Shown in pieces: positions 50,079-64,000 of a DNA stretch of 64,000 nt. The DNA is taken from contig NZ_CP091110.1 in the NCBI RefSeq assembly GCF_021560175.1, positions 4,652,501 through 4,716,500 on the forward strand, written 5' to 3'. A program made the translations under genes and the position numbers. How positions within the stretch are numbered: the first letter of the stretch is position 1; every line of letters starts with the position of its first letter. This DNA is from Neobacillus drentensis. Lineage in GTDB: Bacteria; Bacillota; Bacilli; Bacillales; Cytobacillaceae. The notes under the pieces were generated by a model. It had not been told where the DNA came from, ran no database searches, and saw only the letters and a program-made list of their open reading frames with translations.

Positions 50079-51158
50079 TTACAATGAATAATAGGCACTT
50101 AGAAAGTTTAAAAGATGTTGCTGGGCTTGACTGAGACTCTTTTTACTTTTGGACTTTTGATAAGAATCTAGCTTATCAACCACGGTTGTTAATTCGGTTT
50201 TTATCGCCTTTACCTTTTCATTCTTTAGGCCGCTCGTCTTTAATTGTTCCTCAATGCCTGTAATTGCCTTTGTCGATTCAGCAGACAGTTCATTATTTAA
50301 TAGTGCAGTTGCGGTTGCTAGTGATAACGTTTCATAGATAGCAGGCACACGCTCTAGGAAGCTTTTGTCTTTGTTATTAAGACCGGATACTTGTTTTTCA
50401 TCAAGTAATAGCGGCTTTGCAAAGACCTCCCCTACACCCTCTGCTTTATATTGATTGCCGAGTGATTTAGCTGTTTCTATGGAATCTGCTACCCCGAGAA
50501 ATAGATATTGCTTCCCACTTATTTCAATTAACTTTGCCGGAACCCCTCTTGAGGTAACCTCGGTCGATGTTTCCTTTGCCCCGTCTTTCGAGGAGAACAC
50601 CCCACCTTGGATCACATAGGTTGTCATTTGATCTAAGGTAACTTTGTTTGTTTTTTCTCCGGTATTTGCTACTGTCGTGTTTCCTTTTTCTTCAACGACA
50701 GTTGGGATTGTTGCGGTGCCTGTCTTGTTCGTAGGCCCAGCAATCACTAATTTCAACATTACAAACCCAATCGTCGTACCGAGCAGAATGGCGAAGGTGG
50801 CCGAAATTATTATAGATAGAATGTTTCGGTCCTTCTTCTTATTAGAATTGGTAGAGAAGGTTGTTATTTTGGGGAGGCTGGTCTTGTTTGTTTTTTTATT
50901 GCCTGCGATCGTAAATTCCTCTATCTCTTGTTCGGAGGATTCGGGAATAATCCAGTCAAAGCTCTCATCGACGGATTCCTGTGCGGCGGCTGTTTCGAAA
51001 AATACATCTGAATCTAGGTTAGTCGAATCTATTTTTATCACTCTTGTAGCTGATTCGAGGCTAGTTTCCGGTTCGGTATGTGTTGGTTCTTCTTGGTAGG
51101 CTTTAGTCTCACCATTTAATTTGATCGTGATTGTATTGCCTTTTTTAGGCTTGTCCAC
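50079..51158 (-). CDS. spoIIB: Stage II sporulation protein B (SPOR domain)
   Basis: 359 aa. Cytoplasmic charged N terminus (about 1-110), one membrane segment (about 117-138), then a SPOR domain (about 180-250; YVIQGGVFSSKDGAKE) that binds denuded glycan at the septum, and a helical C terminus. SpoIIB helps septal wall thinning during engulfment. Position after maf matches B. subtilis. It has its own terminator and is separated from the pilus genes by another terminator. Confidence 0.88.
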   Translation of the reverse strand: MDKPKKGNTITIKLNGETKAYQEEPTHTEPETSLESATRVIKIDSTNLDSDVFFETAAAQESVDESFDWIIPESSEQEIEEFTIAGNKKTNKTSLPKITTFSTNSNKKKDRNILSIIISATFAILLGTTIGFVMLKLVIAGPTNKTGTATIPTVVEEKGNTTVANTGEKTNKVTLDQMTTYVIQGGVFSSKDGAKETSTEVTSRGVPAKLIEISGKQYLFLGVADSIETAKSLGNQYKAEGVGEVFAKPLLLDEKQVSGLNNKDKSFLERVPAIYETLSLATATALLNNELSAESTKAITGIEEQLKTSGLKNEKVKAIKTELTTVVDKLDSYQKSKSKKSLSQAQQHLLNFLSAYYSL

Positions 51159-51220: not shown

Positions 51221-51248
51221 AATAACAAGACTTTTGTCGTCTTGTTAT
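51221..51248 (-). terminator. Terminator of the pilus operon (after pilO)
   Basis: ATAACAAGAC, 7-base loop, GTCTTGTTAT, then nine Ts on the minus strand. It separates the pil transcript from spoIIB. Confidence 0.9.
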
Positions 51249-51292: not shown

Positions 51293-52087
51293 CTATGGCT
51301 GTGTGGTTGCTGTTGCAGGATATTGACTTAATGGGTTTTCCTTTCCGGCCGGTGCTGGAGAGTCCATTTTTGGGAGATCTGCCTGCAAATCTGTCAGACT
51401 AGGCATATAAAAGGTCGAAACCGTAAGTGAATAGGTTAACGGCTGAGTCTCCGTTTCTAGGCTCGTAACCTCTTTTTCACCTGTATAATTAATCGCTTCA
51501 ACAGACACAATCCTTGGAAGAGATTCAATTGTTTGAATGAATTTCTCCAAGTTCTGATAGGTTGATGACTCTACTGACAGCTGAACCGTTAATTTTTTTA
51601 ACCCGCTGTAAGGAGTAGCAGCTTGTTGCTGGGTTCCTGATTGGTCCGTTGTTGTTGTACTGGTTGTACTCTGAGTAGTCGCGGTAGTCGCAGCGTCAGA
51701 TTGATTGGTTGTTGTCGTTTGTGTAGTTGTTTGATCGGTGGCAACCGTAACAGCAACATCTTTAGAAAAACTCATCGTTTTTATCTTACTATTAGACACC
51801 GTTTCAGCCTTTTCTAAATCAAGAATAAACTGTTCTTGAAGAGGCTCTACAGGAACCCTTTTTTGGAGTTCTACTGTATTTTCCGGTTTAGATTTGTTCG
51901 TATCCGATTTTTTCTGGCTAACAACTTCTAATAGTTTTTGTTCAGATTTCAGTGCCTGCTCTTTGATGCTTAAGTCAGACTTTAAGGGACTAAGCGAAAA
52001 AAACTGAGAATAAACGAAGACAATGACAATTAAAACCGCTCCAGAACCGACAATAATCTTATCTATTTTTGAAAGGTTGAACTTCAC
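51293..52087 (-). CDS. pilO: PilO-like type IV pilus assembly protein
   Basis: 264 aa bitopic protein: membrane helix (about 11-29), coiled coil (about 30-60), a Thr/Gln-rich linker (about 118-155), then a ferredoxin-like fold (about 160-235; KLTVQLSVESSTYQNLEKFI). The size, topology and 4-bp overlap with pilN support PilO. It would bridge the inner-membrane PilM-PilN complex to the pilus. The long low-complexity linker is unusual. Confidence 0.82.
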   Translation of the reverse strand: MKFNLSKIDKIIVGSGAVLIVIVFVYSQFFSLSPLKSDLSIKEQALKSEQKLLEVVSQKKSDTNKSKPENTVELQKRVPVEPLQEQFILDLEKAETVSNSKIKTMSFSKDVAVTVATDQTTTQTTTTNQSDAATTATTQSTTSTTTTDQSGTQQQAATPYSGLKKLTVQLSVESSTYQNLEKFIQTIESLPRIVSVEAINYTGEKEVTSLETETQPLTYSLTVSTFYMPSLTDLQADLPKMDSPAPAGKENPLSQYPATATTQP

Positions 52088-52923
52088 GGAGCTGTCACCC
52101 CTTCCTCATCCCTCTTCTCCTTCGTTGACTCTTTTATCGCATCTTTATTAAACTTTATTTCAAATTGACCAACGTAACGAGGCAGAATATTTTGATCAGG
52201 TTTCGTTGTGGCAGCGGCAGTTCCACTGGCACCAACGCCTGTATTAGTCGAGTTTGTATTGTTTTGATTAATTGTAGTTCCAGCTGTATTGATTTGAGAA
52301 GTCTGCCCCACAGTAGTTGTAGCTTGGTTAGAGACAGTGCCCTGCGACGCTGTGTTAGTTGTACTAGCTGTCGTTTGTTCAGTTGCAGCACTTGTAGCTG
52401 TTTGTCCGGTTGACTGTGCTGAAGTGTTAGCAGCTGATTGTTCAGTTTCAGTTGCAGATAGTGAGTTAAGGCTTGCGTCTTCAATCCAATCAGATTCTTT
52501 TAAGCTTTCTAAAAAATAAGCAGCTTCACGCGTACTATCAAATTGCACACTAATTGTTACCGTTCCAGCCTCAGTATAGGCAAAAGATTGGATAAATCCA
52601 CGTTCTGGCAATAATGAATTAAGGTGTCTCATTACTGGGATTGTTTGTATCGGATAATCAGTTGCCCAATCTACTGATGTTTTTAATAAACTAGCTGATG
52701 AAGCAACTTCAGTTGTTTGGGTACTTTTTTCTTCCTTTTCAGCTATTTTTTTAGTCATAGCAATTTGTTTATCTGCAGAATCCACTTCGCTTTTTATAGA
52801 TTGAATTTGCCAAAAGTATAAACCGCTAATCAGGGCTAGTACCGCGACAATAGTGGATAAATAAATAATATTAAATTTCTTAGGCTCTTTTTGAGGAAGC
52901 AGGTTAATTTCTACTAGCATCAT
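52084..52923 (-). CDS. pilN: PilN-like type IV pilus assembly protein
   Basis: 279 aa. The short cytoplasmic N terminus VEINLLPQKEPKK carries the INLLP motif that binds PilM. Membrane helix at about 20-38, coiled coil (about 40-65), a ferredoxin-like domain (about 85-160), and a Thr/Gln/Asn-rich stretch (about 163-240) before the end. Overlaps pilM and pilO by 4 bp each. The ectodomain is longer than in classical PilN because of the low-complexity part. Confidence 0.85.
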   Translation of the reverse strand: MMLVEINLLPQKEPKKFNIIYLSTIVAVLALISGLYFWQIQSIKSEVDSADKQIAMTKKIAEKEEKSTQTTEVASSASLLKTSVDWATDYPIQTIPVMRHLNSLLPERGFIQSFAYTEAGTVTISVQFDSTREAAYFLESLKESDWIEDASLNSLSATETEQSAANTSAQSTGQTATSAATEQTTASTTNTASQGTVSNQATTTVGQTSQINTAGTTINQNNTNSTNTGVGASGTAAATTKPDQNILPRYVGQFEIKFNKDAIKESTKEKRDEEGVTAP

Positions 52924-53918
52924 TGCACCTCTTTTAAAGCAAGACCTAAAGGTAGTAAAAGATTGGTCGGTATGCTTAGTTGTTTACTCTTCGGTTCGCT
53001 GTCAATCGTGATGAAATCAACAGGTATATCGTATCTTTCTTTCATTTCATCATAAATCGCCATCAACATCGGATGGTCGCCATTTAAGAGAAACTTTGAA
53101 ACATCCTGCTTTTCATTATTATTGTGTGAATATCGGTAAAAATCTAATAACTTATTCACTTCTTTAAAGATTTCTTCAAACTGGATCACCAATTCTTCTG
53201 GGTCTCCGTTAAACTTACATACCATTAACCCTAGTGGACCTCGTGATATTTCCCATTGGTCGATATCATATGGCAAGGAGAACTGGCGCATCACTACCGG
53301 AACCGTTTCATCAAAGATACATAAATTAACACTTGTTAAATCAAACTGAACAGTGAATAAAATCTCATCAGCTATTGCCCTGTCTAATTTATGATATAAA
53401 CGGTATAACGACAGCGGAGAAATATCTGCTGCAACAGGATTTAATTTTATCCGGTTTAGCATGTCTACATATTCCATAACGCTCTGTTCAGGGGCTGCAA
53501 ATAATAATAAATCCTTTGTCTTGCCATTATCCGGAAGTGTGTAATAATCAAATACCGGTTCTTCAAAAGGTAAATGGATACTCGAGCCAAGCTCTAAATA
53601 GAGATATCCTTTTATTTCATCATCGCGAACATCTGCAGGTATAGTGACCTTTCGAATAATGACAAGTGGATCTGGAACAATAAAACGAATCGACCTTCGC
53701 TTAATCTTCCATTCATCAATACATTCCTCAAGGATGCTCGATAGTGAATCAAAATCAACAATTTTTCCATCCGTAATAATTCCGGGAGGTAAAAAACGCT
53801 CTAACCATCTTTGTGGTGTAGGCGGGTCCTCTTGTTTTAATTCCAAAAACCGAATGGAATGGTCATTTATTACCAGATTAATTATTCTGTTTTTGGTAGA
53901 AAAGAGGGAAAAAGCCAT
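52920..53918 (-). CDS. pilM: PilM-like actin-fold pilus assembly protein
   Basis: 332 aa cytoplasmic actin-like ATPase of the PilM/FtsA-like superfamily. N-terminal INLVINDHSIRFLELKQ and the later RSIRFIVPDPLVIIRKVTIP and VAADISPLSLYRL match the family. It would recruit PilN and the assembly ATPase. ATG 53918 follows AAGGGG. Directly upstream of pilN. Confidence 0.87.
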   Translation of the reverse strand: MAFSLFSTKNRIINLVINDHSIRFLELKQEDPPTPQRWLERFLPPGIITDGKIVDFDSLSSILEECIDEWKIKRRSIRFIVPDPLVIIRKVTIPADVRDDEIKGYLYLELGSSIHLPFEEPVFDYYTLPDNGKTKDLLLFAAPEQSVMEYVDMLNRIKLNPVAADISPLSLYRLYHKLDRAIADEILFTVQFDLTSVNLCIFDETVPVVMRQFSLPYDIDQWEISRGPLGLMVCKFNGDPEELVIQFEEIFKEVNKLLDFYRYSHNNNEKQDVSKFLLNGDHPMLMAIYDEMKERYDIPVDFITIDSEPKSKQLSIPTNLLLPLGLALKEVQ

Positions 53919-53945
53919 ATTTATGAACCCCTTAGTAAAGTATCC

Positions 53946-54689
53946 TTAGTAAAGTATTTGAAAGTATAGGTTAATAAGTTTGGTACCCCAAAAATAGGCT
54001 GTCAATGATCCAGCCGCAATAAATGGACCGAATGGGATAGGCTGTCGTTTTTTCACAACTCTTAACAAGAGAGCTAAACCGCCGATTACAGCACCGAATA
54101 ATGTTGATAAAAAGAATGATAATAGTACAAGTTTAAATCCTAACACGAAGCCGATTAGAGCATAAAGCTTTACATCACCAAAGCCCATTCCACCCTTACT
54201 GACAACAGCGATGATGAGGAGCAAAAGAAACCCTGTCACGGAACCTAGAATGCTATCCCACCAAGGGTAAAGCGGCCAAATAATTCGTTCCAATAAAAAA
54301 ATCCCTGCAAACCAAACTAAAATTTTATCAGGGATGATCATATAATGGATATCGGACACGGTGATAATAATAAACATTGAGATAAACGTCAAGGCAACGA
54401 CTAATTCTCCAGACCATCCAAACACGTATGGTGCTAGTGCAAATAAGATTCCGGTTAATAGTTCAAAAAAAGGATAGATAGGAGAAATCCGCGACTGACA
54501 GCCGCGGCATTTCCCTTTTTGGAACATATATGATAAAACCGGAATTAGTTCAAATGGTGTTAACTGATGCCCGCAATTTGGACATGCAGATCTTGGTGTG
54601 ATGATTGATTTGTTAACCGGAACTCTTAAACCGATGACGTTAAAAAAGGAGCCCAGTACTACTCCATAGATAATAAATACTAAATTCAT
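53946..54689 (-). CDS. pilD: Type 4 prepilin peptidase (A24A family)
   Basis: 247 aa, about eight membrane segments. A zinc-binding four-Cys domain (CPNCGHQ and KCRGCQ, about 36-82), the two catalytic Asp motifs TVSDIHYMIIPD and GFGDVKLYAL. It cleaves the prepilin leader after Gly and methylates the new N terminus. Its ATG overlaps the pilA stop (TAATG). In B. subtilis the equivalent enzyme is ComC, encoded next to spoIIB; here it sits inside a pilus operon at the same locus. Confidence 0.94.
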   Translation of the reverse strand: MNLVFIIYGVVLGSFFNVIGLRVPVNKSIITPRSACPNCGHQLTPFELIPVLSYMFQKGKCRGCQSRISPIYPFFELLTGILFALAPYVFGWSGELVVALTFISMFIIITVSDIHYMIIPDKILVWFAGIFLLERIIWPLYPWWDSILGSVTGFLLLLIIAVVSKGGMGFGDVKLYALIGFVLGFKLVLLSFFLSTLFGAVIGGLALLLRVVKKRQPIPFGPFIAAGSLTAYFWGTKLINLYFQILY

Positions 54690-55168
54690 TAGTTAGTGTA
54701 ATCTATCAATTCTTTTTCTGTTGCTACTCCGTCCTTAGTAGCACCTACACCCGCACCTGGTTTATCAACTAAATCTACAGATTTATGCCCAGATAGTGTA
54801 TAAGTGTACTTTCCAGTAGCCGGAGTAAACGTAACATTAACTACAAAGCTATCATCTTTTACATGATCTAAGTAGTCTTTTAATGGAATATTAGTGCCAG
54901 TTCCAGCAGTAGCATCCAATGTACCAGACCCATCCATATTCAATGTTAGAGTAGTAGCATTAGAATGGTCAGCGACATACATTTTAGCTGCATTTATTAT
55001 TTGCAATCCTTCCTGTACTGTTGCTTTATTATCTGACTTTTTAATTACATTCCCAATCGTCGGAATCGCAATAGCAGCAATAATCCCCAAAATAACAATT
55101 ACTGCTAATAATTCAATTAACGTAAAACCTTTTTGTTCTTTCATTTTTGCTTTTAAAGCTTGTACCAT
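54689..55168 (-). CDS. pilA: Type IV prepilin (major pilin candidate)
   Basis: 159 aa. Leader of 14 residues ending KEQKG, then FTLIELLAVIVILGIIAAIA: cleavage expected between Gly and Phe, with Glu at +5. The mature protein has a hydrophobic N-terminal helix and a beta-rich head (about 65-140). ATG 55168 follows GAGGAG by 7 bases; an in-frame ATG five codons up overlaps that site. It has its own strong promoter, as expected for a major pilin. A ComGC-like pseudopilin is an alternative. Confidence 0.88.
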   Translation of the reverse strand: MVQALKAKMKEQKGFTLIELLAVIVILGIIAAIAIPTIGNVIKKSDNKATVQEGLQIINAAKMYVADHSNATTLTLNMDGSGTLDATAGTGTNIPLKDYLDHVKDDSFVVNVTFTPATGKYTYTLSGHKSVDLVDKPGAGVGATKDGVATEKELIDYTN

Positions 55169-55214
55169 CTTCCCACTCCTCATGGTTCTATGAACCTAGT
55201 ATATTTTCTCTATG

Positions 55215-55242
55215 AGTATACAATAATTGACAAGAATGTAAA
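55215..55242 (-). promoter_or_regulatory. Promoter of pilA
   Basis: Minus strand -35 TTTACA (55242-55237), 16-bp spacer, -10 TATACT (55220-55215). Start predicted near 55208. A hairpin GGTTC-ATA-GAACC (55196-55184) sits near the mRNA 5' end, just before the ribosome site. Confidence 0.72.
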
Positions 55243-55322
55243 AGATGTTTTTTATCACTTTTTGTCACATTTTTTGAATAATTGTAATGTTTGATAAAAA
55301 ATTGTAATAAATGTAGAATTTT

Positions 55323-56528
55323 TTAACTCATTTGGTCGTACATGGAGAACATTGGCATCATAATCGACATGACAATTACGCCTACAACTCCTGCTAAAAA
55401 AACAATCATGATCGGCTCAATTAACGACTTTAGACGATCTGTCCCTGCTTCTACTTCTTTTTCATAGAATTCCGCAATCTTCGACAGCATTGCATCTAGT
55501 GCCCCTGTTCCTTCACCAATGATGATCATTTGTGTCACAAGTGGTGGAAAAGCCCAGTGGGCAAGCATAGGCTCTGTCATTGATCTTCCTTTTTCGAGCG
55601 AATCACGAGATTCACGAATCACTTTAGAAATAACTTCATTTTCCACAACCTTTTCGACAATCGACATCGCTTGCAGGATCGGCACAGAACTAGAGAATAA
55701 AGTACTAAGCGTACGCATCATCCGGGCTAACTGTGCTTTTTGTACCATTCTCCCAAATATCGGCATCTTTAATGTTACCAAATCCAAGTAGTATTTAGCC
55801 TGCTTGTTTCTTTTCATGAACATAAAAGATAGGTAGATAGCTACAAAAAACAGACCTATTAACCACCAAAAGGCTTTCATAAATTCACTAGCCGTTAGAA
55901 CAAATTTTGTAATAGCAGGAAGCTTGAGATTCATATCGCTAAACATCGTGACAAATTTAGGAACAACCCCAACCAGTAAAAAGACTACAGCCAAAATAGC
56001 AATAATTCCAATTACGGCTGGATACGTAAGCGCTGATTTAACTTTTTCCCTCGTATGGTGCTGCTTTTCAAAGTCCTCAGCTAACCGTTCGAGCGTTCCA
56101 TCCATATTCCCACTGACTTCTCCGGCCTTTACCATGTTAACAAACATCGAATTAAAGATTTTCGGATGTTTAGAAACTGCGTCAGAAAAAGGATTTCCTT
56201 CACGAAGTTCCTGTTCGACATCTAGTAGAGCACGCTTAAGTCCTTTACTTTCTGTTTGAGCAGCAAGAACCGCGGTTGCCTCTACAATGGTTACGCCAGC
56301 CTTCAATAGGGTCGCAAATTGTCTGAGATAAATAACAAAATCCTGCATTTTGACGGGATTGCCAAACGATAATTCCATAGTCATTAATGTCTCAGGGACT
56401 TCCATCATTTCTACTACCCTAACGCCATCATCTTTCAGTTTTACCATCGCTTCACGACGGGAAGCTGCCGTAATCACGCCTTGCTTCTTGCCGCGTTTAT
56501 CTCGTCCGGAATACTTAAATCTAGGCAT
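55323..56528 (-). CDS. pilC: PilC-type pilus platform protein
   Basis: 401 aa inner-membrane platform of the type II secretion F/PilC family. Two homologous T2SSF domains (about 68-190 and 270-395) with QFATLLKAGVTIVEA and MMRTLSTLFSSSVPILQAM, and three membrane segments (about 168-190, 218-240, 370-392). N terminus PRFKYSGRDKRGKKQ is typical. Overlaps pilT by 8 bp. Confidence 0.94.
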   Translation of the reverse strand: MPRFKYSGRDKRGKKQGVITAASRREAMVKLKDDGVRVVEMMEVPETLMTMELSFGNPVKMQDFVIYLRQFATLLKAGVTIVEATAVLAAQTESKGLKRALLDVEQELREGNPFSDAVSKHPKIFNSMFVNMVKAGEVSGNMDGTLERLAEDFEKQHHTREKVKSALTYPAVIGIIAILAVVFLLVGVVPKFVTMFSDMNLKLPAITKFVLTASEFMKAFWWLIGLFFVAIYLSFMFMKRNKQAKYYLDLVTLKMPIFGRMVQKAQLARMMRTLSTLFSSSVPILQAMSIVEKVVENEVISKVIRESRDSLEKGRSMTEPMLAHWAFPPLVTQMIIIGEGTGALDAMLSKIAEFYEKEVEAGTDRLKSLIEPIMIVFLAGVVGVIVMSIMMPMFSMYDQMS

Positions 56529-57570
56529 CCATCATCATCTTTTCTTGGAGATATTTAGTTGCTGATTCTTTCTGAATCAAATTACGATCAAGCATGTCTC
56601 TAATACTCATCTCCAGCGTATGCATTCCTTGGGCGCGTGAAGTTTGCATCGTACTTTGAATTTGGTGAATCTTTTCACTTCTAATTAAGTTAGCGATCGC
56701 AGGATTATTCACTAATATCTCCGTTGCAGCTTTTCGTCCTTGTTTATCCACTGTGGGAAATAGACGCTGTGAAATAACCCCCACCAATACTGAAGCTAAC
56801 TGGACACGTATTTGTGGCTGCTGTGCTGGTGGAAATACATCAATAATACGGTTAATGGTTGCCGGTGCACTTGAGGTATGAAGGGTACCAAAAACTAAGT
56901 GACCCGTTTCGGCTGCTGTGATTGCAATACCAATCGTCTCTAAGTCACGCATCTCCCCTACAAGAATAACATCGGGATCTTGACGAAGGGCTGCTCTTAG
57001 ACCACTCGCATAGTTCTTAGTATCAAATCCCACCTCGCGCTGATCAATAATGGAATTTCCATGTTTATGAAGATACTCAATTGGATCTTCTAGGGTAATG
57101 ATATGCTTCCTCATTGTGCGATTCATATAATCTACCATCGAGGCAAGTGTTGTCGACTTACCACTTCCTGTAGGCCCTGTCACAAGGATTAATCCTTGCG
57201 GCTTTTCAACAAGCTTTGGAATGATTTCCGGTAAATCCAAATCTTCAAGTGTCGGAGTTTTTGACGCAACTACCCTTAAAGCAAGAGAAACACTTTTACG
57301 TTGATGATAGGCATTGACACGAAACCGGGATACTCCAGGGATCCCATATGAGAAATCAAGTTCCCCTCGTTCTTTAAATTGTTCATATAAGTTTTCGGGG
57401 ATAATTTGTTTGGCAATTGCCTCCGTGTCTGCTGGTAACAATATCTCTTTCCCATAGCGTTTAATATCTCCATTAATACGAAAAATGGGTTGTACTCCAA
57501 CGGTTAAATGGATATCTGATGCTCTGAATTCCATTGCGGCCCGTAGAATGTTATCAATTCTTTCATTCAT
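56521..57570 (-). CDS. pilT: PilT retraction ATPase
   Basis: 349 aa hexameric ATPase that depolymerises type IV pili. N-terminal PAS-like domain, Walker A TGPTGSGKSTTLAS (about 130-143), Asp box ITLEDPIEYLH, Walker B DPDVILVGEMRD, His box TGHLVFGTLHTSSA, and PAIANLIRSEKIHQ, the counterpart of the retraction-linked AIRNLIRE motif. Its presence argues for pili that retract rather than a pseudopilus. Confidence 0.95.
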   Translation of the reverse strand: MNERIDNILRAAMEFRASDIHLTVGVQPIFRINGDIKRYGKEILLPADTEAIAKQIIPENLYEQFKERGELDFSYGIPGVSRFRVNAYHQRKSVSLALRVVASKTPTLEDLDLPEIIPKLVEKPQGLILVTGPTGSGKSTTLASMVDYMNRTMRKHIITLEDPIEYLHKHGNSIIDQREVGFDTKNYASGLRAALRQDPDVILVGEMRDLETIGIAITAAETGHLVFGTLHTSSAPATINRIIDVFPPAQQPQIRVQLASVLVGVISQRLFPTVDKQGRKAATEILVNNPAIANLIRSEKIHQIQSTMQTSRAQGMHTLEMSIRDMLDRNLIQKESATKYLQEKMMMDA

Positions 57571-57580
57571 AGTCTCGCTC

Positions 57581-59272
57581 CTACTCTAGAATGGCAACAC
57601 GTAAGACTTCTTCTGTTGTTGTCAAACCTTGTTTCACTTTTAATAGACCATCATCAATTAGAAAAATAGTCTTATTTTTAATTGCATGTTCTTTTAACTT
57701 TTGAAATGAGTTATCATTCATGATAATTCTTCGCATGTTATCGTCTAGAACCAGTACCTCATGGAGGGCAATTCTTCCCTTATAGCCTGTCATATTGCAG
57801 GAAGGACATCCTTTGCCTCTGACAATCTTGTCAATCTTCAAACCACGTCTTGCAAAGATTTCCTTTTCTCTAAGTGAAGGCTCTTGTGATTCTGCACAAT
57901 CCCGGCACACCTTTCTGACAAGTCGTTGTGCGACAATCCCACTAACAGAGGAGGCAATCATAAACGGTTCTACACCCATATCATTGAGACGGGTTATGGT
58001 TCCTAGTGAATCATTTGTATGCAGAGTACTTAATACTAAATGCCCTGTTAAAGATGCACGAATTGCTATCTCTGCCGTCTCTTTATCTCGAATCTCTCCG
58101 ACCATGATTATATTTGGATCCTGACGAAGGATTGAACGCAGACCTGCAGCAAAGGTCATCCCGACATTTGGATTTACTTGTATTTGATTAATTCCTTCCA
58201 ATTGATATTCAACCGGGTCCTCAATTGTAATGATATTGACCTCTTCACTGTTTAATTTATTTAAAGCCGCATAAAGGGTGGAGGATTTCCCTGACCCCGT
58301 AGGGCCAGTAATCAGCACAATCCCTGTTGGCTGCTCAATTAATTGATTAAACCTCTTAAAATTTAGGGCATTAAAGCCTATTTTATTTAAATCATTTAAG
58401 GCTGCTCCCATGTCCAATAATCGCATAACTATTTTTTCGCCATAGACAGTTGGCAGGGTAGAGACACGGAGATCAATGGGATAAAAATCGAGGTGCAATT
58501 TGATTCGTCCGTCTTGTGGAATCCGATGCTCGGTAATATCCAAATTAGACATTATTTTGATTCTTGCTGTTAAAACGCTTTGCATATGACGGGGTAAAGT
58601 ACGCTCCACCCTAAGCACACCATCAACACGATAGCGAATGACGATTTTTGTTTCTTGTGGGTCTATATGAATATCACTGGCCTTTTGAATAACGGCATTG
58701 GTAAGAAGCTGATTAACAAGGCGCACAATCGGTGAATCCTGGTTTGTAACGTCTTCCTCCCTGCCCCTATCATTCGAAGTCAAGTCATCAAAAAGCTCCT
58801 CAAACCCATCATCATCTTCATAATACTTATTGATCGTTCGGAGGATATCCTCCTTTGTCGCAATCCCCGCTTCAATTTGGAAGCCAGTAGAAAGGCGTAA
58901 ATCATCGATGATGATAAAGTCCATTGGATCGACCATTGCCACAAACAGCTTATTTCCCTCTTTTTTAAGCGGTACAATCAAATTCCTTTTCGCAATATCC
59001 TTTGAAATTAAGGAAAATAAGCTTGTATCAAATGGAAATTGTACTAGATTCACATGGGGGATACCCAGCTGATTCTCTAATACCTCTGCCAATTGCTGGT
59101 CTGTTATATATCCTTTTTGGAGCAAGGCTTCACCAAGCTTTTGGCTGGACCCTTTTTCTTCTATGGTAGCAGCAAGCTGCTCTTGTGTAACAAGACCTTG
59201 TTCAATTAATAATTCACCTAATCGTTTTCTTGTTTGCTTTCTATTGTTATCAACTTTATTTTGGTTGTTCAT
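57581..59272 (-). CDS. pilB: PilB/GspE-type pilus assembly ATPase
   Basis: 563 aa. N-terminal GspE_N domain (about 15-150; RLGELLIEQGLVTQEQL), ATPase core with Walker A TGPTGSGKSSTLYAAL (about 320), DPNIIMVGEIRD, GHLVLSTLHTNDS, and the tetracysteine metal site CRDC and CPSC (about 465-505). I chose ATG 59272 (MNNQNKVDNN), behind GGGGGAA; the frame is open 25 codons further, inside the upstream gene. It overlaps that gene by 17 bp. Confidence 0.95.
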   Translation of the reverse strand: MNNQNKVDNNRKQTRKRLGELLIEQGLVTQEQLAATIEEKGSSQKLGEALLQKGYITDQQLAEVLENQLGIPHVNLVQFPFDTSLFSLISKDIAKRNLIVPLKKEGNKLFVAMVDPMDFIIIDDLRLSTGFQIEAGIATKEDILRTINKYYEDDDGFEELFDDLTSNDRGREEDVTNQDSPIVRLVNQLLTNAVIQKASDIHIDPQETKIVIRYRVDGVLRVERTLPRHMQSVLTARIKIMSNLDITEHRIPQDGRIKLHLDFYPIDLRVSTLPTVYGEKIVMRLLDMGAALNDLNKIGFNALNFKRFNQLIEQPTGIVLITGPTGSGKSSTLYAALNKLNSEEVNIITIEDPVEYQLEGINQIQVNPNVGMTFAAGLRSILRQDPNIIMVGEIRDKETAEIAIRASLTGHLVLSTLHTNDSLGTITRLNDMGVEPFMIASSVSGIVAQRLVRKVCRDCAESQEPSLREKEIFARRGLKIDKIVRGKGCPSCNMTGYKGRIALHEVLVLDDNMRRIIMNDNSFQKLKEHAIKNKTIFLIDDGLLKVKQGLTTTEEVLRVAILE

Positions 59273-60572
59273 TCGGCTTCCCCCAAAGGTCATCAACATT
59301 GGAATCTTGTTGTGTCGTACCAGATGTTGAAGTAGTTTGACTTCCATCAGGACTAGTTTCAGTTGAAGGAGTAGTTGTTGTTGTTGTTTGATTTACGGTT
59401 GTCGCTGTTCCCTGTGTTGTACCCGTTAGGGCATGAATCTCCACTCGATAGGAAGGAGAATAATAATCTTCAGAAATAAATTCTGTCTTTAAAAGCTGTT
59501 CTCCTTGATAGATATCACGGTAAATTTTTACGTATCTGCCATCGTTACCTGCCGATTTGACGATTGTATTCCCTGATTTTAATTGTGGGCTATATTGAAC
59601 AATTGTTTTCGGTTTTATTAACTGTTCGTCTTTCTTATTGATTTTATAGGAATAAAGGAGCTTTTCACCCTTTAAACTCACAGTTAATTGATTATTTTTT
59701 AAACCAAGCACAAGAGTATAGCTTGTTTTATTTGGATTGGTGATAATGAAGTCCATGTTATTCTCAGGACTCACGCGAGCTTCCATTCCCAATCCTGCAT
59801 AGTAGGGAAGTGTAGTGCTAATATTTCGATCCACGATAGTGAAATTTGTTGGTAATACCGCTTGATAAATCCCTGTTCCAAGCAAACTTAGTATGTTGGC
59901 ATTGGTAATCTTCAAAATCTTGGCATAGTCAAGAACGGAAAATGTTTCTCCCTCTGCAATTTTAATCTCTGGGTTTTTTTCGATGAATTCAGGAAGTTCA
60001 ATAGGTATATCGTTTAATTTAAGAACAGCCTCATTGATAACAAAATCCTTTTTAACTGCGTTTGCCAGCATGTAATCATTTGTTAAGTTAAAGATTTGTT
60101 GACTTTTTTGAAGTGTAGAGGCATTTGATTCTAAACTTGATTTCAGTTTTGTAAAATCAACATCCTTACTAGTAAGCTCTGGGAACAGAATACTAACTTG
60201 GTCCTCTAGCTGTGTTAAATCAATCGTTACGTAGACAGGATTGGCCTGTCCATCCTTAATGGAATTAATTGTTGTTACCTTGTCGAGGTTGAAAAGATGC
60301 AAATCAAACGGAACTGTCTTTTCACTATATTGAAAGGTAAATTTAGCCTTTTTCAGCCAATCTAGGTATTGTTTTTCAAGTAAACTGGCTGCTTCTACAG
60401 CTGTTTTTCCCGAAATATCTATCTGACCAATTTGGGTTCCATCGGAATATTTCCCATCAAGAGTAGACAATTTTTCGTAGGCTTTTGCTCCAAAGTGAGA
60501 GGTACTAAAGATAAATGCTGTACTAAGGACTAGTACGATAAATAATTTTATAAACTGAGTGTTTTTCTTCAT
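59256..60572 (-). CDS. Exported VanW/G5-like protein of the pilus locus
   Basis: 438 aa. Membrane anchor or signal (about 8-28), a first region resembling the peptidoglycan-binding PG_4-like domain (GKYSDGTQIGQIDISGKTAVEAASLL), a VanW-like core ending NPNKTSYTLVLGLKNNQLTV, a G5-like domain (about 330-392, KTIVQYSPQLKSGNTIVKSAG) and a Thr/Ser-rich tail (about 395-438). Domain names are from general resemblance. It may sit in or on the wall near the pilus. ATG 60572 follows GGGGCAGGG. The upstream in-frame extension overlaps the next gene and is not used. Confidence 0.7.
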   Translation of the reverse strand: MKKNTQFIKLFIVLVLSTAFIFSTSHFGAKAYEKLSTLDGKYSDGTQIGQIDISGKTAVEAASLLEKQYLDWLKKAKFTFQYSEKTVPFDLHLFNLDKVTTINSIKDGQANPVYVTIDLTQLEDQVSILFPELTSKDVDFTKLKSSLESNASTLQKSQQIFNLTNDYMLANAVKKDFVINEAVLKLNDIPIELPEFIEKNPEIKIAEGETFSVLDYAKILKITNANILSLLGTGIYQAVLPTNFTIVDRNISTTLPYYAGLGMEARVSPENNMDFIITNPNKTSYTLVLGLKNNQLTVSLKGEKLLYSYKINKKDEQLIKPKTIVQYSPQLKSGNTIVKSAGNDGRYVKIYRDIYQGEQLLKTEFISEDYYSPSYRVEIHALTGTTQGTATTVNQTTTTTTPSTETSPDGSQTTSTSGTTQQDSNVDDLWGKPNEQPK

Positions 60573-60594
60573 ATCCCTGCCCCAATCTATCAAA

Positions 60595-61722
60595 CTACTT
60601 TTGTAATTTGAATTCCCTCTCCGGATCGCTTTCCTTTTTGCTTTCTGCATTTTTTGCTGCAGCAGCTTCCTCAATTGCAAGGAAAAGTTCGTTAAGTGAA
60701 TTATTATCCTCTTCACTAATAACCGAGTCCGTAACTTTGTTTTCCGTTTCAAAAACATTGATATCCTGAAGGTGGCTCTCATCATTAGAATCAGTCACTT
60801 CCAACTCTTCAAATAGCAAACCTTCTATATCTGATAAATAGCCTTCCCCCGTTTCCTCTACGATATCTTCATCTTTGTTATCAGGTTCAATCGTATCATC
60901 AAGAAATAACAAATCGTCATTGTCTATTTCCTTATTTCCTATCTCTACTTCATTTTGGGATTGTTCGGGAAATGGCATTATCTGAGTTTCTTCTAAATGT
61001 AATATAGGTAATACTTCTGATTCTTGTTCGTCTTGATTAAGCAATTCCATTTCTAAATGCTTTTCAGTGCTTTGATTAAAAACATCATATTCAAGGTCTT
61101 CCATAACCTGAAGGCGGCCCTCATAATTAGAATTAGTCAGTTCCAACTCTTCAAATAGCAAACTTTCTATATCTGATAGATAGCCTTCTCCAGTTTCATT
61201 TTCCTTTACTATATCTTCATCCCTGTCATCAGGTTCAATCGTATCATCAAGAAATAATAGATCGTCATTGTCTATTTCCTTATTTTCCACTTCATTTTGG
61301 GATTCTTCGGAGAATGGCATCATCTGAGTTTCTTCTAAATGTAATGTAGGTAATACTTCTGGTTCTGGTTCGGCTTCTAGGTCAAGCAATTCCATTTCTA
61401 AATGCTTTTCAGTGCTTTGATTAAACACATCATATTCAAAGTTTTCCTCTACTTGTAATTCAAGTAAATCGGATTCTGAAATATATATTAACGACCCAAA
61501 CCGAGTATCCATTATATAAGCTGAAATCAATACTAGTAATAGTATTATTAACCCTGTCTGCCATAACGGGATTGAAGTATCAACAACTAGTCCTGCAAGG
61601 GCCAACACAAAACCAATCAAAGCAACAGAAAGCTTTCCTTTGAAGGTAAGACCAATCGGTATGAAATTTAAAACTAATAGTAACAGTAAACCTGAACCAA
61701 TGGCCCATATAAACGACTGCAT
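60595..61722 (-). CDS. Acidic membrane protein with internal tandem duplication
   Basis: 375 aa, not recognised. Three hydrophobic segments in the first 75 residues, then a very acidic cytoplasmic or external part. Residues about 95-209 and 210-323 are a tandem repeat at 115-residue spacing; both copies hold YDVFNQSTEKHLEMELL, NKEIDNDDLLFLDDTIEPD and GEGYLSDIE. The C terminus (NELFLAIEEAAAAKNAESK) is helical and alanine-rich. ATG 61722 follows GAAGGGA by 9 bases. It heads the segment with the VanW-like gene and pilB, so a pilus-linked role is inferred. Confidence 0.75.
   Translation of the reverse strand: MQSFIWAIGSGLLLLLVLNFIPIGLTFKGKLSVALIGFVLALAGLVVDTSIPLWQTGLIILLLVLISAYIMDTRFGSLIYISESDLLELQVEENFEYDVFNQSTEKHLEMELLDLEAEPEPEVLPTLHLEETQMMPFSEESQNEVENKEIDNDDLLFLDDTIEPDDRDEDIVKENETGEGYLSDIESLLFEELELTNSNYEGRLQVMEDLEYDVFNQSTEKHLEMELLNQDEQESEVLPILHLEETQIMPFPEQSQNEVEIGNKEIDNDDLLFLDDTIEPDNKDEDIVEETGEGYLSDIEGLLFEELEVTDSNDESHLQDINVFETENKVTDSVISEEDNNSLNELFLAIEEAAAAKNAESKKESDPEREFKLQK
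61096..61440 (-). repeat. Duplicated coding unit, copy A (copy B at 60754-61095)
   Basis: About 345 bp in tandem within the acidic-protein gene, in frame. Copies share long exact DNA runs and differ by small in-frame indels near EPEPEV/ESEV and ENETGEG/ETGEG, indicating a fairly recent duplication. Confidence 0.85.
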
Positions 61723-61873
61723 TTTGACACTTCCCTTCTCCAACTAGACTATTATCCTATAAAAAAATAAATTATAGGAACTTTTTTATACAAAATTAGA
61801 CAAAATCTGCCTACTAAATATTGTATTATATTTTTTTATAGTAAGAAAGAATCTTGATAATTTTTTTACAAGA

Positions 61874-61926
61874 AAAAAACCCAATCCTTGCTAAGGATGA
61901 AAGTTAGAATACCTAAAAGCAAGGAT
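61874..61926 (-). terminator. Probable terminator of the minor-pilin genes
   Basis: Minus strand ATCCTTGCT (61926-61918 side) pairs with AGCAAGGAT, with an alternative short ATCCTT-AGC-AAGGAT hairpin, followed by TGGG and seven Ts. It separates the minor-pilin genes from the acidic-protein gene. Confidence 0.7.
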
Positions 61927-61949
61927 CGAGTATAAAAAATAATGCTTCA

Positions 61950-63341
61950 TTAATTACTCTCTCTAGTTGGTTCGGTAGTTATACTGTCTTTAACAGGCGA
62001 AAGTCCGGTCCCATTATCAACAAAGAGAGGGGAATTATCATAATTTATTTGAACAAATTTAAATATAAAGTTATCATCATTACCACTAGAAGTTAGTGAT
62101 CGGGCTATGATCGAACCTGAAAAGGAAGTATTTATTGAAACACTTGCATTAGGGGCATAAATCATTTTTGGTACGGTATTATCATTACTCAAATAACTAA
62201 CGCCAATAGTAGTACCAGTATTAATACCTGCATCAATAATATGCCCAAGCACACCTTTCCCCTTTGCAGGGTCAATCACTATTATCTCGTTTAACGGATT
62301 TTTTGCGTAAATGGACCCATAGATTTTTCCATTTATTTTTGTCGGAGTTCCTTCTAGAAATACATAGATTTTCTCTATATTAGAATCTGTCCCTAAAATA
62401 TTTCCCTCAGTGCCAATAATACTGCCTGACCCCATATCAAGATTTTTCAGATAAAATGAGAGCTTGCCAGTACCGACTACTTTAATTTTTCCGTAAACAT
62501 TTAAATTGTTTAACACTAAATTTTTATTATAATTTCCAACATCAATTGTTAACGTTTGCCCACTATTGACTGTTAGGGTATTAAAAGCCATATCTGTGTT
62601 CATTGTTAATGTTTGGGTTGTTGATGTAAATGAATAATTATTTGAAGTTGTTATTGAGAAAGCAGGGAACTCGGGTATATTTAATGGAGTGCTCACATTT
62701 GTATATATATTTCCTGTTACTATTGCTTTACTACCATTTAGTGTTACCTCACTCATAGTTGCTGATGTTCCCACCGATCCATCTACTGGTACGTTTTTTA
62801 ATACTAAACTATCTTTTACAAACAATACAGTATCTGCCGGTATTGTTACACTTGTCCGCGGTTTCCATGATAAATGGAATATTTTCACTACTTTTCTTGT
62901 CCGATTATTAATTTTTCCAAGTGAAGTAATTTTGTAATCATAACTGTAAGATATTGATGTACTGCTGGGAATCTGTTCAATTGTTGTCGATGCAACAGGC
63001 TTGTTCCCAGAAGTTGTGTCAAAACCCGTATAATCTTTTACCACTCCTAGCTCCATTGCATTATTCATTCTTGTAAAAAAGTCGGAACTAGTTACTGCGA
63101 GGCTATAAGATTCTTTAAGCTTTGATTCTATTATATTCATTCGATAAGTAATTCCCGACTCAGCAACATAATAGGCAGATTGAGTATCCCGGTCACCGCT
63201 GCTCATCTTTACATTGGTTGAAGCAAGACCAAGAAGACTAATACCCAAAATAGAAATGACAACTAGAACCATAAGAACAACAATGAGAGCTACACCTTTC
63301 TCATTATTTAATGAATTAATATGAGAAAAAAGTTTTTTCAT
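61950..63341 (-). CDS. PilX-like minor pilin with large beta-rich ectodomain
   Basis: 463 aa. Prepilin-like leader ending LNNEKG, then VALIVVLMVLVVISILGISL and SGDRDTQSAYYVAESGI, the PilX N-terminal pattern (no Glu at +5). Residues about 160-440 are Asn/Thr/Ser-rich with repeating beta strands (VDGSVG, VTGNIYT, INGKIYGSIYA, INTSFSGSIIA), suggesting a beta-solenoid like DUF7305-type pilin heads. Possibly a tip adhesin; function inferred. ATG 63341 follows AGGTG. Confidence 0.8.
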   Translation of the reverse strand: MKKLFSHINSLNNEKGVALIVVLMVLVVISILGISLLGLASTNVKMSSGDRDTQSAYYVAESGITYRMNIIESKLKESYSLAVTSSDFFTRMNNAMELGVVKDYTGFDTTSGNKPVASTTIEQIPSSTSISYSYDYKITSLGKINNRTRKVVKIFHLSWKPRTSVTIPADTVLFVKDSLVLKNVPVDGSVGTSATMSEVTLNGSKAIVTGNIYTNVSTPLNIPEFPAFSITTSNNYSFTSTTQTLTMNTDMAFNTLTVNSGQTLTIDVGNYNKNLVLNNLNVYGKIKVVGTGKLSFYLKNLDMGSGSIIGTEGNILGTDSNIEKIYVFLEGTPTKINGKIYGSIYAKNPLNEIIVIDPAKGKGVLGHIIDAGINTGTTIGVSYLSNDNTVPKMIYAPNASVSINTSFSGSIIARSLTSSGNDDNFIFKFVQINYDNSPLFVDNGTGLSPVKDSITTEPTRESN

Positions 63342-63349
63342 CTTTTCAC

Positions 63350-63817
63350 CTATTTCCTAATATAAATAGTGCTTGTTAGTGTTGTTTGTGGAAGATTATT
63401 AGAGGGGATATTGGCAATAGTTATGGTATACATGTCGTCTTTAATTTTTTTTAAGGTAAAGGTTTGAATATTATTGATTAAAGGATCAGCATTTTTCATA
63501 ATATTTTTATTCGCCAGCTTATAAACATCGACCCCATTAATCTTTAATTGGTCATTCGTAATATCTGAATCATCAATATTCACAAAGCTTACAGTTGAAG
63601 CTTTTCGAATCTCACGAGTAATAATATTCATTGCCAGCCTTACATTTGATTGGTTATTGATTTCAGCAGTTTGGCTGCTTGACTGCTTAATCCCAAGCAT
63701 ATGAACGGAGCCTGCTAATAGTAAAATGATTGATAAGAGAGAGAGTGCGGCTAAAAGTTCAATGAGAGTTACACCTTTTTCGTTGTTTTGCATATTTAAG
63801 CCTACACTTTTTTCCAT
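63350..63817 (-). CDS. Prepilin-like minor pilin (PilW/ComG-like)
   Basis: 155 aa. Leader MEKSVGLNMQNNEKG, then VTLIELLAALSLLSIILLLA with Glu at +5, a class III signal. The head resembles small pseudopilins (IITREIRKASTVSFVN). The start could also be ATG 63793 with a 7-residue leader; I kept 63817, whose leader length matches its neighbours and which overlaps the upstream gene by 16 bp. Ends 8 bp before the PilX-like gene. Confidence 0.8.
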   Translation of the reverse strand: MEKSVGLNMQNNEKGVTLIELLAALSLLSIILLLAGSVHMLGIKQSSSQTAEINNQSNVRLAMNIITREIRKASTVSFVNIDDSDITNDQLKINGVDVYKLANKNIMKNADPLINNIQTFTLKKIKDDMYTITIANIPSNNLPQTTLTSTIYIRK

Positions 63818-64000
63818 GATAGCAGCATCTCCATTTGAGCTTCTATTTTTGCCGTTGTCTTATTCTTTTTAACCCTTACGATTACATTTACTAACCTGTT
63901 TCCAGTCGTAGTGTTTACTTTAGTAATGGGTGGGGGAGAAGTTAATTCAATATAAACATAATATCCAGGTACAGTTGTTTCAAAGCTCTTACAAATAGTC
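63802..64000 (-). CDS. 3' end of a further pilus-locus gene (partial)
   Basis: An open frame enters from the right edge and stops at TAG 63804-63802, giving about 66 codons with no start inside the window. The visible part includes FETTVPGYYVYIELTSPPP, NRLVNVIVRVKKNKTTAKIE and LLSWKKV: a beta-rich C terminus as in PilV-type or other pseudopilins that contain VNVIVRV-like strands. Identity cannot be settled without the N terminus. Confidence 0.65.
   Translation of the reverse strand, partial: TICKSFETTVPGYYVYIELTSPPPITKVNTTTGNRLVNVIVRVKKNKTTAKIEAQMEMLLSWKKV

What the first reader, a model, noticed from the sequence alone, without database searches (positions are those of the whole stretch)
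51293..64000. Near-complete type IV pilus locus in the comC slot after spoIIB
Seen: pilB, pilT, pilC, pilin, A24 peptidase, pilM, pilN, pilO and at least two minor pilins lie contiguously after spoIIB. Known: B. subtilis has only the prepilin peptidase comC between spoIIB and folC. Inference: ComC may be the remnant of such a pilus operon, or this lineage gained the operon around an existing peptidase. PilT with its retraction motif implies twitching or DNA-uptake pili in a Gram-positive spore-former. No PilQ is expected, and none is seen.
Basis: partly seen in the sequence, partly recalled or inferred. Interest (0 to 1): 0.7.

Follow-up and report, generated by a model that had tools for sequence, protein, structure and literature searches.

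The report
ComC descends from a pilus operon
This bacterium carries a complete set of genes for a retractable surface fibre, and comparison with relatives suggests that the single gene B. subtilis keeps at this spot, needed for DNA uptake, is the last survivor of the same gene set.

Summary
The minus strand carries an intact type IVa pilus operon between folC and spoIIB: three minor pilins, an acidic membrane protein, a VanW-G5 protein, then pilB, T, C, A, D, M, N, O and a terminator. The nearest named relatives are Neobacillus-like. The genome has one recognisable prepilin peptidase, this operon's, plus a separate comG locus, so one enzyme probably serves both pili.

PilT occurs in 205 of 299 genomes of the order. 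The full operon was in this slot in 48 of 60 PilT-positive genomes inspected; in 64 of 80 PilT-negative ones the peptidase still sits there, alone (48) or with operon debris (16). Over all 79 reduced slots, 54 debris hits lie inside and none in 1.36 Mb of flank. Lone ComCs, the B. subtilis group's included, are scattered among operon-borne PilDs (one clade rejected, p-AU 1.7e-7). Aneurinibacillus, outside the order's clade in the PilB/T/C tree, has the operon in this slot. Equal-cost parsimony alone does not decide.

Pilus function is inferred. Type IV pili in Bacillales are known; I found no paper stating this origin of ComC.

The parts
63802..64000 (-). minor pilin (PilV/GspI-like by position), cut by the window end; the whole gene runs to about 64284
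   Evidence: N_methyl Pfam hit over cut-off on L002:2302-2784; ORF
63350..63817 (-). minor pilin (PilW/ComGF/GspJ-like), type III signal KGVTLIE
   Evidence: N_methyl over cut-off; ComGF model below cut-off
61950..63341 (-). PilX/GspK-like minor pilin, 463 aa, no Glu at +5 (KGVALIVV)
   Evidence: PilX_N over cut-off, GspK below cut-off
60595..61743 (-). acidic membrane protein of unknown function, with an internal repeat seen by eye
   Evidence: no Pfam hit even at E 1; a profile hit in 64 of 101 full operons
59256..60572 (-). VanW + G5 protein, N-terminal helix, predicted extracytoplasmic
   Evidence: Pfam G5 over cut-off, VanW just below it; nearest profile hit upstream of pilB in 81 of 101 full operons; AlphaFold mean pLDDT 84.7; G5 structures are its best Foldseek matches
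57581..59272 (-). pilB, extension ATPase with MshEN domain (c-di-GMP binding predicted)
   Evidence: (NF053729 51 bits, cut-off 38)
56521..57570 (-). pilT, retraction ATPase (Walker A, His box, AIANLIRS motif; motif labels recalled)
   Evidence: TIGR01420 478.5 bits, cut-off 319.1
55323..56528 (-). pilC, platform protein
   Evidence: T2SSF, two stretches
54689..55183 (-). pilA, probable major pilin (KGFTLIE)
53946..54689 (-). A24 prepilin peptidase PilD/ComC, the only one over cut-off in the genome
52920..53918 (-). pilM
   Evidence: PF11104 over cut-off
52084..52923 (-). pilN, with a long Thr/Gln/Ser-rich tail
   Evidence: PF05137 over cut-off, translation
51293..52087 (-). pilO, with a Thr-rich stretch
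   Evidence: PF04350 over cut-off, translation
51222..51248 (-). terminator-like site: 10-pair stem followed by eight T, between pilO and spoIIB
   Evidence: 12 terminator-like sites in the region, 8.6 expected in shuffles; this one judged by stem and T-run
50079..51158 (-). spoIIB, downstream flank of the slot, followed by maf, radC, mreB
   Evidence: no Pfam hit; named by position and by the recurrent spoIIB-maf-radC-mreB order

Best explanation
This is an intact type IVa pilus operon, ancestral in this order of Bacilli. Inferred from its parts: PilB, probably licensed by c-di-GMP through its MshEN domain, drives polymerisation of PilA on PilC and PilMNO; PilV/W/X prime or cap the fibre; PilT retracts it; no secretin is needed because there is one membrane. 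The operon's PilD is the only recognisable prepilin peptidase in the genome, so it most likely also matures the pilins of the separate ComG DNA-uptake pilus (genome content shown, enzymology not). That shared use explains the lone comC of the B. subtilis group: in many lineages the pilus operon decayed, but the peptidase was kept because the widespread ComG pilus still needs it. The lone comC between folC and spoIIB is then the last surviving gene of this operon, a state reached several times independently.
For: One peptidase plus a comG locus. ComGB-family match in 299 of 299 genomes, 269 over cut-off. PilT over cut-off in 205 of 299 genomes of the order. Full operon in the same slot in 48 of 60 PilT-positive regions; peptidase still in the slot in 64 of 80 PilT-negative regions, 48 alone and 16 with debris. 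Over the 79 non-full slots of both sets, 19 hold debris: 54 in-slot hits (nine profiles) in 223 kb, 0 in 1,358 kb outside the slot of the same loci, 0 among 30,121 ORFs of reversed sequence; all 54 on the peptidase's strand. Median distance from folC to spoIIB/maf/radC 13.0 kb full (n=38), 4.5 kb partial (n=18), 1.4 kb lone (n=60). Both presumed catalytic Asp present in 163 of 163 slot copies. Lone peptidases as one clade rejected, p-AU 1.7e-7; at least 7 changes forced by starred branches. PilB/T/C of 52 rows of the order form one clade (100*) with Aneurinibacillus outside it, yet Aneurinibacillus has the operon in the same slot. PilBTCM and flanking-gene distances agree, r=0.63, n=61, 0 of 999 permutations as high.
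Against: Parsimony with equal costs does not settle the ancestral state and leans slightly to lone (24 against 26 changes); at gain cost 2 it ties, at 3 or more the operon root wins, and with gains cheaper than losses the lone root wins. The peptidase tree has many weak branches (17 of 86 starred), and the group of all order rows against the outgroup in the reduced tree has support 87, not starred. Distances agree with the flanking genes only moderately (0.63 and 0.48), so some transfer is possible; a T4P cluster in Paenibacillus thiaminolyticus is described as mobile (PMC9765702, passages). Slot conservation is not absolute: 9 of 80 PilT-negative genomes have a lone peptidase elsewhere, and a paper places comC of the anthrax species outside the slot (PMC7232415, passage). 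Only one outgroup with the operon in this slot was seen; the loci of Chengkuizengella, Paenibacillus, Cohnella and Clostridia show no slot flanks. PilT-negative genomes were over-sampled (80 of 94, against 60 of 205). Nothing here shows expression, filaments, motility or processing.
Confidence: 0.85

Rival explanations
1. The operon was gained in this lineage around an existing lone comC, which became its peptidase.
For: Equal-cost parsimony slightly prefers a lone root (24 against 26 changes).
Against: Genes would have to enter on both sides of the peptidase in the same order repeatedly; debris in the slot of PilT-negative genomes shows loss; an outgroup has the same slot arrangement.
Confidence: 0.05
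2. The operon is ancestral in the order, but some present-day copies are regains: the whole slot was swapped between species by homologous recombination through the conserved flanks.
For: Only moderate agreement of pil and flanking-gene distances. One near-identical pair, L019 and L208, was not examined further and may simply be close kin.
Against: PilB/T/C of the order form one clade apart from the other Bacillota sampled. This rival would not undo the remnant conclusion for lone comC.
Confidence: 0.08
3. The locus makes a type II secretion-like pseudopilus or a DNA-uptake pilus instead of a surface pilus.
For: PilB scores almost as well against GspE (613 bits) as against PilB (635), and PilC best against GspF (383), all below the models' cut-offs; the three minor pilins resemble a GspI/J/K tip.
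Against: PilT is far over its cut-off; PilM, PilN and PilO are present; no secretin over cut-off in the genome; a separate comG locus exists.
Confidence: 0.06

Closest known systems
Pil operons of Bacillus sp. NRRL B-14911, Geobacillus and others, Imam et al. 2011 (PMC3244431; passages and section 11 read)
   Same: Type IV pilus operon in Bacillales species that also have one com operon; pilT present in a number of Gram-positive pil operons
   Different: The text holds no mention of folC or spoIIB (0 occurrences), and the parts I read propose no link to the origin of comC
Paenibacillus thiaminolyticus T4P cluster (PMC9765702; passages read)
   Same: By its locus tags, pilB, pilT, pilC, pilin, then pilD, pilM, pilN in that order, with a c-di-GMP-binding PilB
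   Different: There the cluster is described as carried on a mobile element; here it is a chromosomal operon in a recurrent slot
B. subtilis ComC
   Same: Same enzyme family and slot: comC between folC and maf, next to spoIIB (PMC7232415 passage; B. mojavensis L200)
   Different: No pil genes around it; it serves the ComG pilus
Streptococcus sanguinis Com pilus (PMC10790768; passages read)
   Same: ComC is described there as a 'distant loner' outside the comG operon
   Different: A species with a T4aP of its own; the present data do not address its ComC

Membership tests
Type IVa pilus system | Extension ATPase PilB and platform PilC | tested here: met
   Pfam T2SSE and T2SSF far over cut-off; the NCBIfam PilB model is the best match but below its equivalog cut-off, 635.1 against 675.65
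Type IVa pilus system | Retraction ATPase PilT with its motifs | tested here: met
   TIGR01420 478.5 bits, cut-off 319.1; motifs, whose labels are recalled
Type IVa pilus system | PilM, PilN, PilO alignment complex | tested here: met
   all over Pfam cut-offs; NCBIfam pilM below its cut-off, 85.4 against 133
Type IVa pilus system | Pilin with type III signal and own prepilin peptidase | tested here: met
Type IVa pilus system | Surface filament that extends and retracts | not testable with these tools
   needs microscopy
ComC (competence prepilin peptidase) | A24_N plus A24 domains with two catalytic Asp | tested here: met
   domains; Asp113 and Asp172 invariant; that these two are the catalytic ones is recalled
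ComC (competence prepilin peptidase) | Genomic slot between folC and spoIIB | tested here: met
ComC (competence prepilin peptidase) | Processes ComGC and is needed for transformation | not testable with these tools
   inferred from being the only peptidase found beside a comG locus
Type II secretion system | Outer-membrane secretin GspD | tested here: not met
   no secretin over cut-off in the genome

The most novel reading that the evidence does not exclude
Beyond ComC's descent, the VanW-G5 protein encoded directly upstream of pilB in most of the pilus operons examined is a dedicated cell-wall part of the single-membrane pilus machine: membrane-anchored, with a G5 domain that grips the wall, it would guide the fibre through thick peptidoglycan, doing for one-membrane cells what the secretin and its wall-binding partner do in two-membrane cells.
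Probability: 0.3. Interest if true: 0.72.

Novelty: new member of a known kind. Interest (0 to 1): 0.6.

Why it matters
It offers an explanation, for this order, of why the competence peptidase gene sits alone, far from the comG genes it serves. It recasts B. subtilis as belonging to a lineage that lost type IV pili, shows that PilT-bearing genomes are the majority in this order (205 of 299), and makes a clear prediction: in pilus-bearing relatives, deleting one gene should abolish both surface pili and transformation.

Tried and rejected
Equal-cost parsimony to root the history: did not decide. ComK-box pairs upstream of the peptidase at two mismatches or fewer: 3 of 48 lone, 1 of 16 partial, 0 of 48 full, against about 0.8-1.2% of shuffles; too weak to use. 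Promoter scan: 44 sites against 40.9 expected, uninformative. An independent-pairs test was fed the same trait twice, so its p value means nothing; it shows only that 5 pairs are independent on starred branches. Idea that displaced peptidases joined the comG locus: not shown. In L119 and L079 (group f47.g50) the printed neighbours look to me like Tad genes in L119 and partly in L079 (by eye; weak pilB and pilC profile hits in L119). The tblastn test used a wrong comGA query (it picked comGB), so comGA was not tested there. The pilX profile was built from only 2 sequences, so its count (28 of 101) is surely too low. The script failed on a file name.
Full report
What is there. On the minus strand, from the folC side, the genes run: minor pilin (PilV-like, window 63802 to about 64284, past the window edge), minor pilin (PilW-like), PilX/GspK-like minor pilin, acidic membrane protein, VanW-G5 protein, pilB, pilT, pilC, pilA, pilD, pilM, pilN, pilO, then a terminator-like hairpin (51248-51222) and spoIIB, maf, radC, mreB. 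Neighbours overlap or lie within 30 bases from the acidic gene to pilO, except for a 139-base gap between pilC and pilA (coordinates), so one transcription unit is likely (inference). Each gene is one open frame. PilT scores 478.5 bits against a cut-off of 319.1; PilB carries an MshEN domain, and the c-di-GMP motif model NF053729 is over its cut-off. PilB, PilC and PilM are below the cut-offs of the strict NCBIfam models, which I read as distance from the lineages those models were built on.

Whose genome. The nearest named peptidases are those of Bacillus sp. OK048 (81% identity) and Neobacillus citreus (79%), so the window is Neobacillus-like; the tool notes that the window's own record may be left out there. 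The genome is one contig of 6.26 Mb.

One peptidase for two pili. The whole genome has one A24_N peptidase and no other A24 match over cut-off. It has two proteins with T2SSF domains, this PilC and a ComGB about 195 kb away (343 bits to the ComGB model), preceded by a comGA-like ATPase and followed by ORFs that I name comGC, comGD and comGE by position and signal motif (the comGE ORF has no Pfam hit). No secretin is over cut-off. So the operon's PilD probably processes the ComG pilins too, unless an unrelated enzyme does. In 299 genomes of the order, 294 have the peptidase, and by my reading of the list 4 have a second match, one of these a weak fragment. All 299 have a ComGB-family match at E 1e-8 or better, 269 over the cut-off; some of the 30 weaker ones could be PilC alone.

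The slot across the order. PilT is over its cut-off in 205 of 299 genomes, 94 of 116 genera, and in 144 of 250 drawn from the class. I fetched regions from 60 of the 205 PilT-positive and 80 of the 94 PilT-negative genomes and annotated them with profiles built from the window's proteins. PilT-positive: full operon in the slot in 48, full operon without two visible slot flanks in 11, one cut by a contig end. PilT-negative: lone peptidase in the slot 48, peptidase with pil debris in the slot 16, lone elsewhere 9, partial elsewhere 7 (split by hand from the table). 'Elsewhere' means that fewer than two flank genes were seen in the fetched stretch. Among the 80 named loci, 36 had the full operon in the slot, 12 lone, 3 with debris, 29 other. 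Lone ones include Bacillus mojavensis of the B. subtilis group, B. glycinifermentans, Peribacillus, Siminovitchia, Halalkalibacter and Lederbergia; decayed ones include Parageobacillus caldoxylosilyticus and Cytobacillus horneckiae. The third named debris locus, L178 (Anoxybacillus sp.), is cut by its contig end and may be a full operon.

Debris. Over the 79 non-full slot loci of both sets, 19 hold remnants of nine pil-operon profiles: 54 hits inside 223,348 bases of slot, none in 1,357,896 bases outside it in the same loci, and none among 30,121 ORFs of the reversed sequences. All 54 lie on the peptidase's strand. Some are single weak pieces, for example the pilA pieces near 25 bits in three genomes of group f45.g48. 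The slot shrinks from a median of 13.0 kb (full, n=38) to 4.5 kb (partial, n=18) to 1.4 kb (lone, n=60).

Trees. In an 89-row peptidase tree, lone and operon-borne copies are mixed: lone needs 18 changes, at least 7 forced by starred branches; the order's rows together with Paenibacillaceae lie behind a 99* branch, apart from clostridial PilD. Only 17 of its 86 inner branches are starred, and all five rows flagged as long branches are lone. With six long lone rows and the partial rows left out, lone copies as one clade are rejected (20 of 73 rows, p-AU 1.7e-7). Concatenated PilB/T/C: 52 rows of the order form one clade (100*), with Aneurinibacillus, Chengkuizengella and Paenibacillus unresolved outside it and three Clostridia as the root. 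Aneurinibacillus terranovensis has the operon before spoIIB-maf-radC-mreB (L209). Parsimony is undecided at equal costs (24 changes with a lone root, 26 with an operon root); the decision for an ancestral operon rests on gene order, debris and this one outgroup. Patristic distances agree with those of the flanking genes: PilBTCM r=0.63 (n=61), peptidase r=0.48 (n=138), 0 of 999 permutations as high in either.

The orphaned enzyme. Asp113 and Asp172 are kept in 163 of 163 slot copies, and the four cysteines in all but one copy, an operon-borne one. Relative to flanking genes, lone copies have evolved faster (median root-to-tip ratio 1.69 lone, 1.52 partial, 1.45 full; n=60, 17, 60; Mann-Whitney lone against full p 6e-8, rows not independent), as expected of an enzyme with fewer clients (inference).

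A likely extra part. A VanW-G5 protein is the nearest profile hit upstream of pilB in 81 of 101 full operons and present in 86. AlphaFold gives a confident model (mean pLDDT 84.7, low only in the C-terminal tail) with an N-terminal helix; matches to solved structures at E below 0.001 are G5-containing proteins (that RpfB holds a G5 domain is recalled). The profile finds none in some full operons, for example the Oceanobacillus and Chengkuizengella loci. One search for VanW with type IV pili listed no paper on such an operon gene among the ten shown of 728; a paper on CPR bacteria mentions a VanW family with a putative peptidoglycan-binding domain, enriched there as type IV pili are (PMC6744442, passages read).

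What is known. Pil operons in Bacillus sp. NRRL B-14911, Geobacillus and Exiguobacterium were listed in 2011 (PMC3244431, passages and section 11 read), and a pilus cluster in Paenibacillus thiaminolyticus was described as mobile in 2022 (PMC9765702, passages read). A broad survey notes that peptidases are shared between systems and models comC as a loner (PMC6668835, passages read). One held paper has comC, folC and spoIIB together; its passages on comC and folC give gene positions, with comC between folC and maf in B. subtilis but outside the slot in the anthrax species, and do not mention pili (PMC7232415). Searches listed no paper that I recognised as deriving comC from a pilus operon; each showed only its top rows, and the library lacks most subscription journals, so this is not proof of novelty.

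Noticed in passing
window 59256-60572; 81 of 101 full operons: A VanW-G5 protein gene sits directly upstream of pilB; in PilT-negative L062 and L144 (and in two pieces in L122) it survives with pilD after pilB, pilT and pilC are gone.
   Followed up: partly
window 60595-61743: The acidic membrane protein holds two near-identical segments (EYDVFNQSTEKHLEMELL twice), an internal duplication; no Pfam match.
   Followed up: no
window 51293-52923 and 59256-60572: PilN, PilO and the VanW-G5 protein carry long Thr/Gln/Ser-rich stretches, possibly wall-spanning or glycosylated linkers.
   Followed up: no
L053, L120, L123, L149 (group f2): Loci with pilB, pilC, pilA, pilD, pilM, pilN and pilO but no pilT, and no folC or spoIIB in the fetched stretch.
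   Followed up: no
L093, L119, L079 (group f47.g50): L093 has a pilus operon without pilD (the place of that genome's peptidase was not listed); in L119 the peptidase lies beside what look by eye like Tad genes.
   Followed up: partly
L111 (G126): Two pilus operon copies in tandem, the first without pilD.
   Followed up: no
L032, L033, L041, L048, L050, L101, L103, L188, L191-L193, L195, L196, L199, L205, L207: A second gene order, pilA-pilM-pilN-pilO-pilD, with the peptidase last (16 of 101 full operons); named cases are Planococcus, Psychrobacillus, Lysinibacillus and kin.
   Followed up: partly
L170: A record titled Pseudomonas sp. ISL-84 carries the typical slot valS-folC-comC-spoIIB-maf-radC-mreB, so its name is probably wrong.
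   Followed up: no
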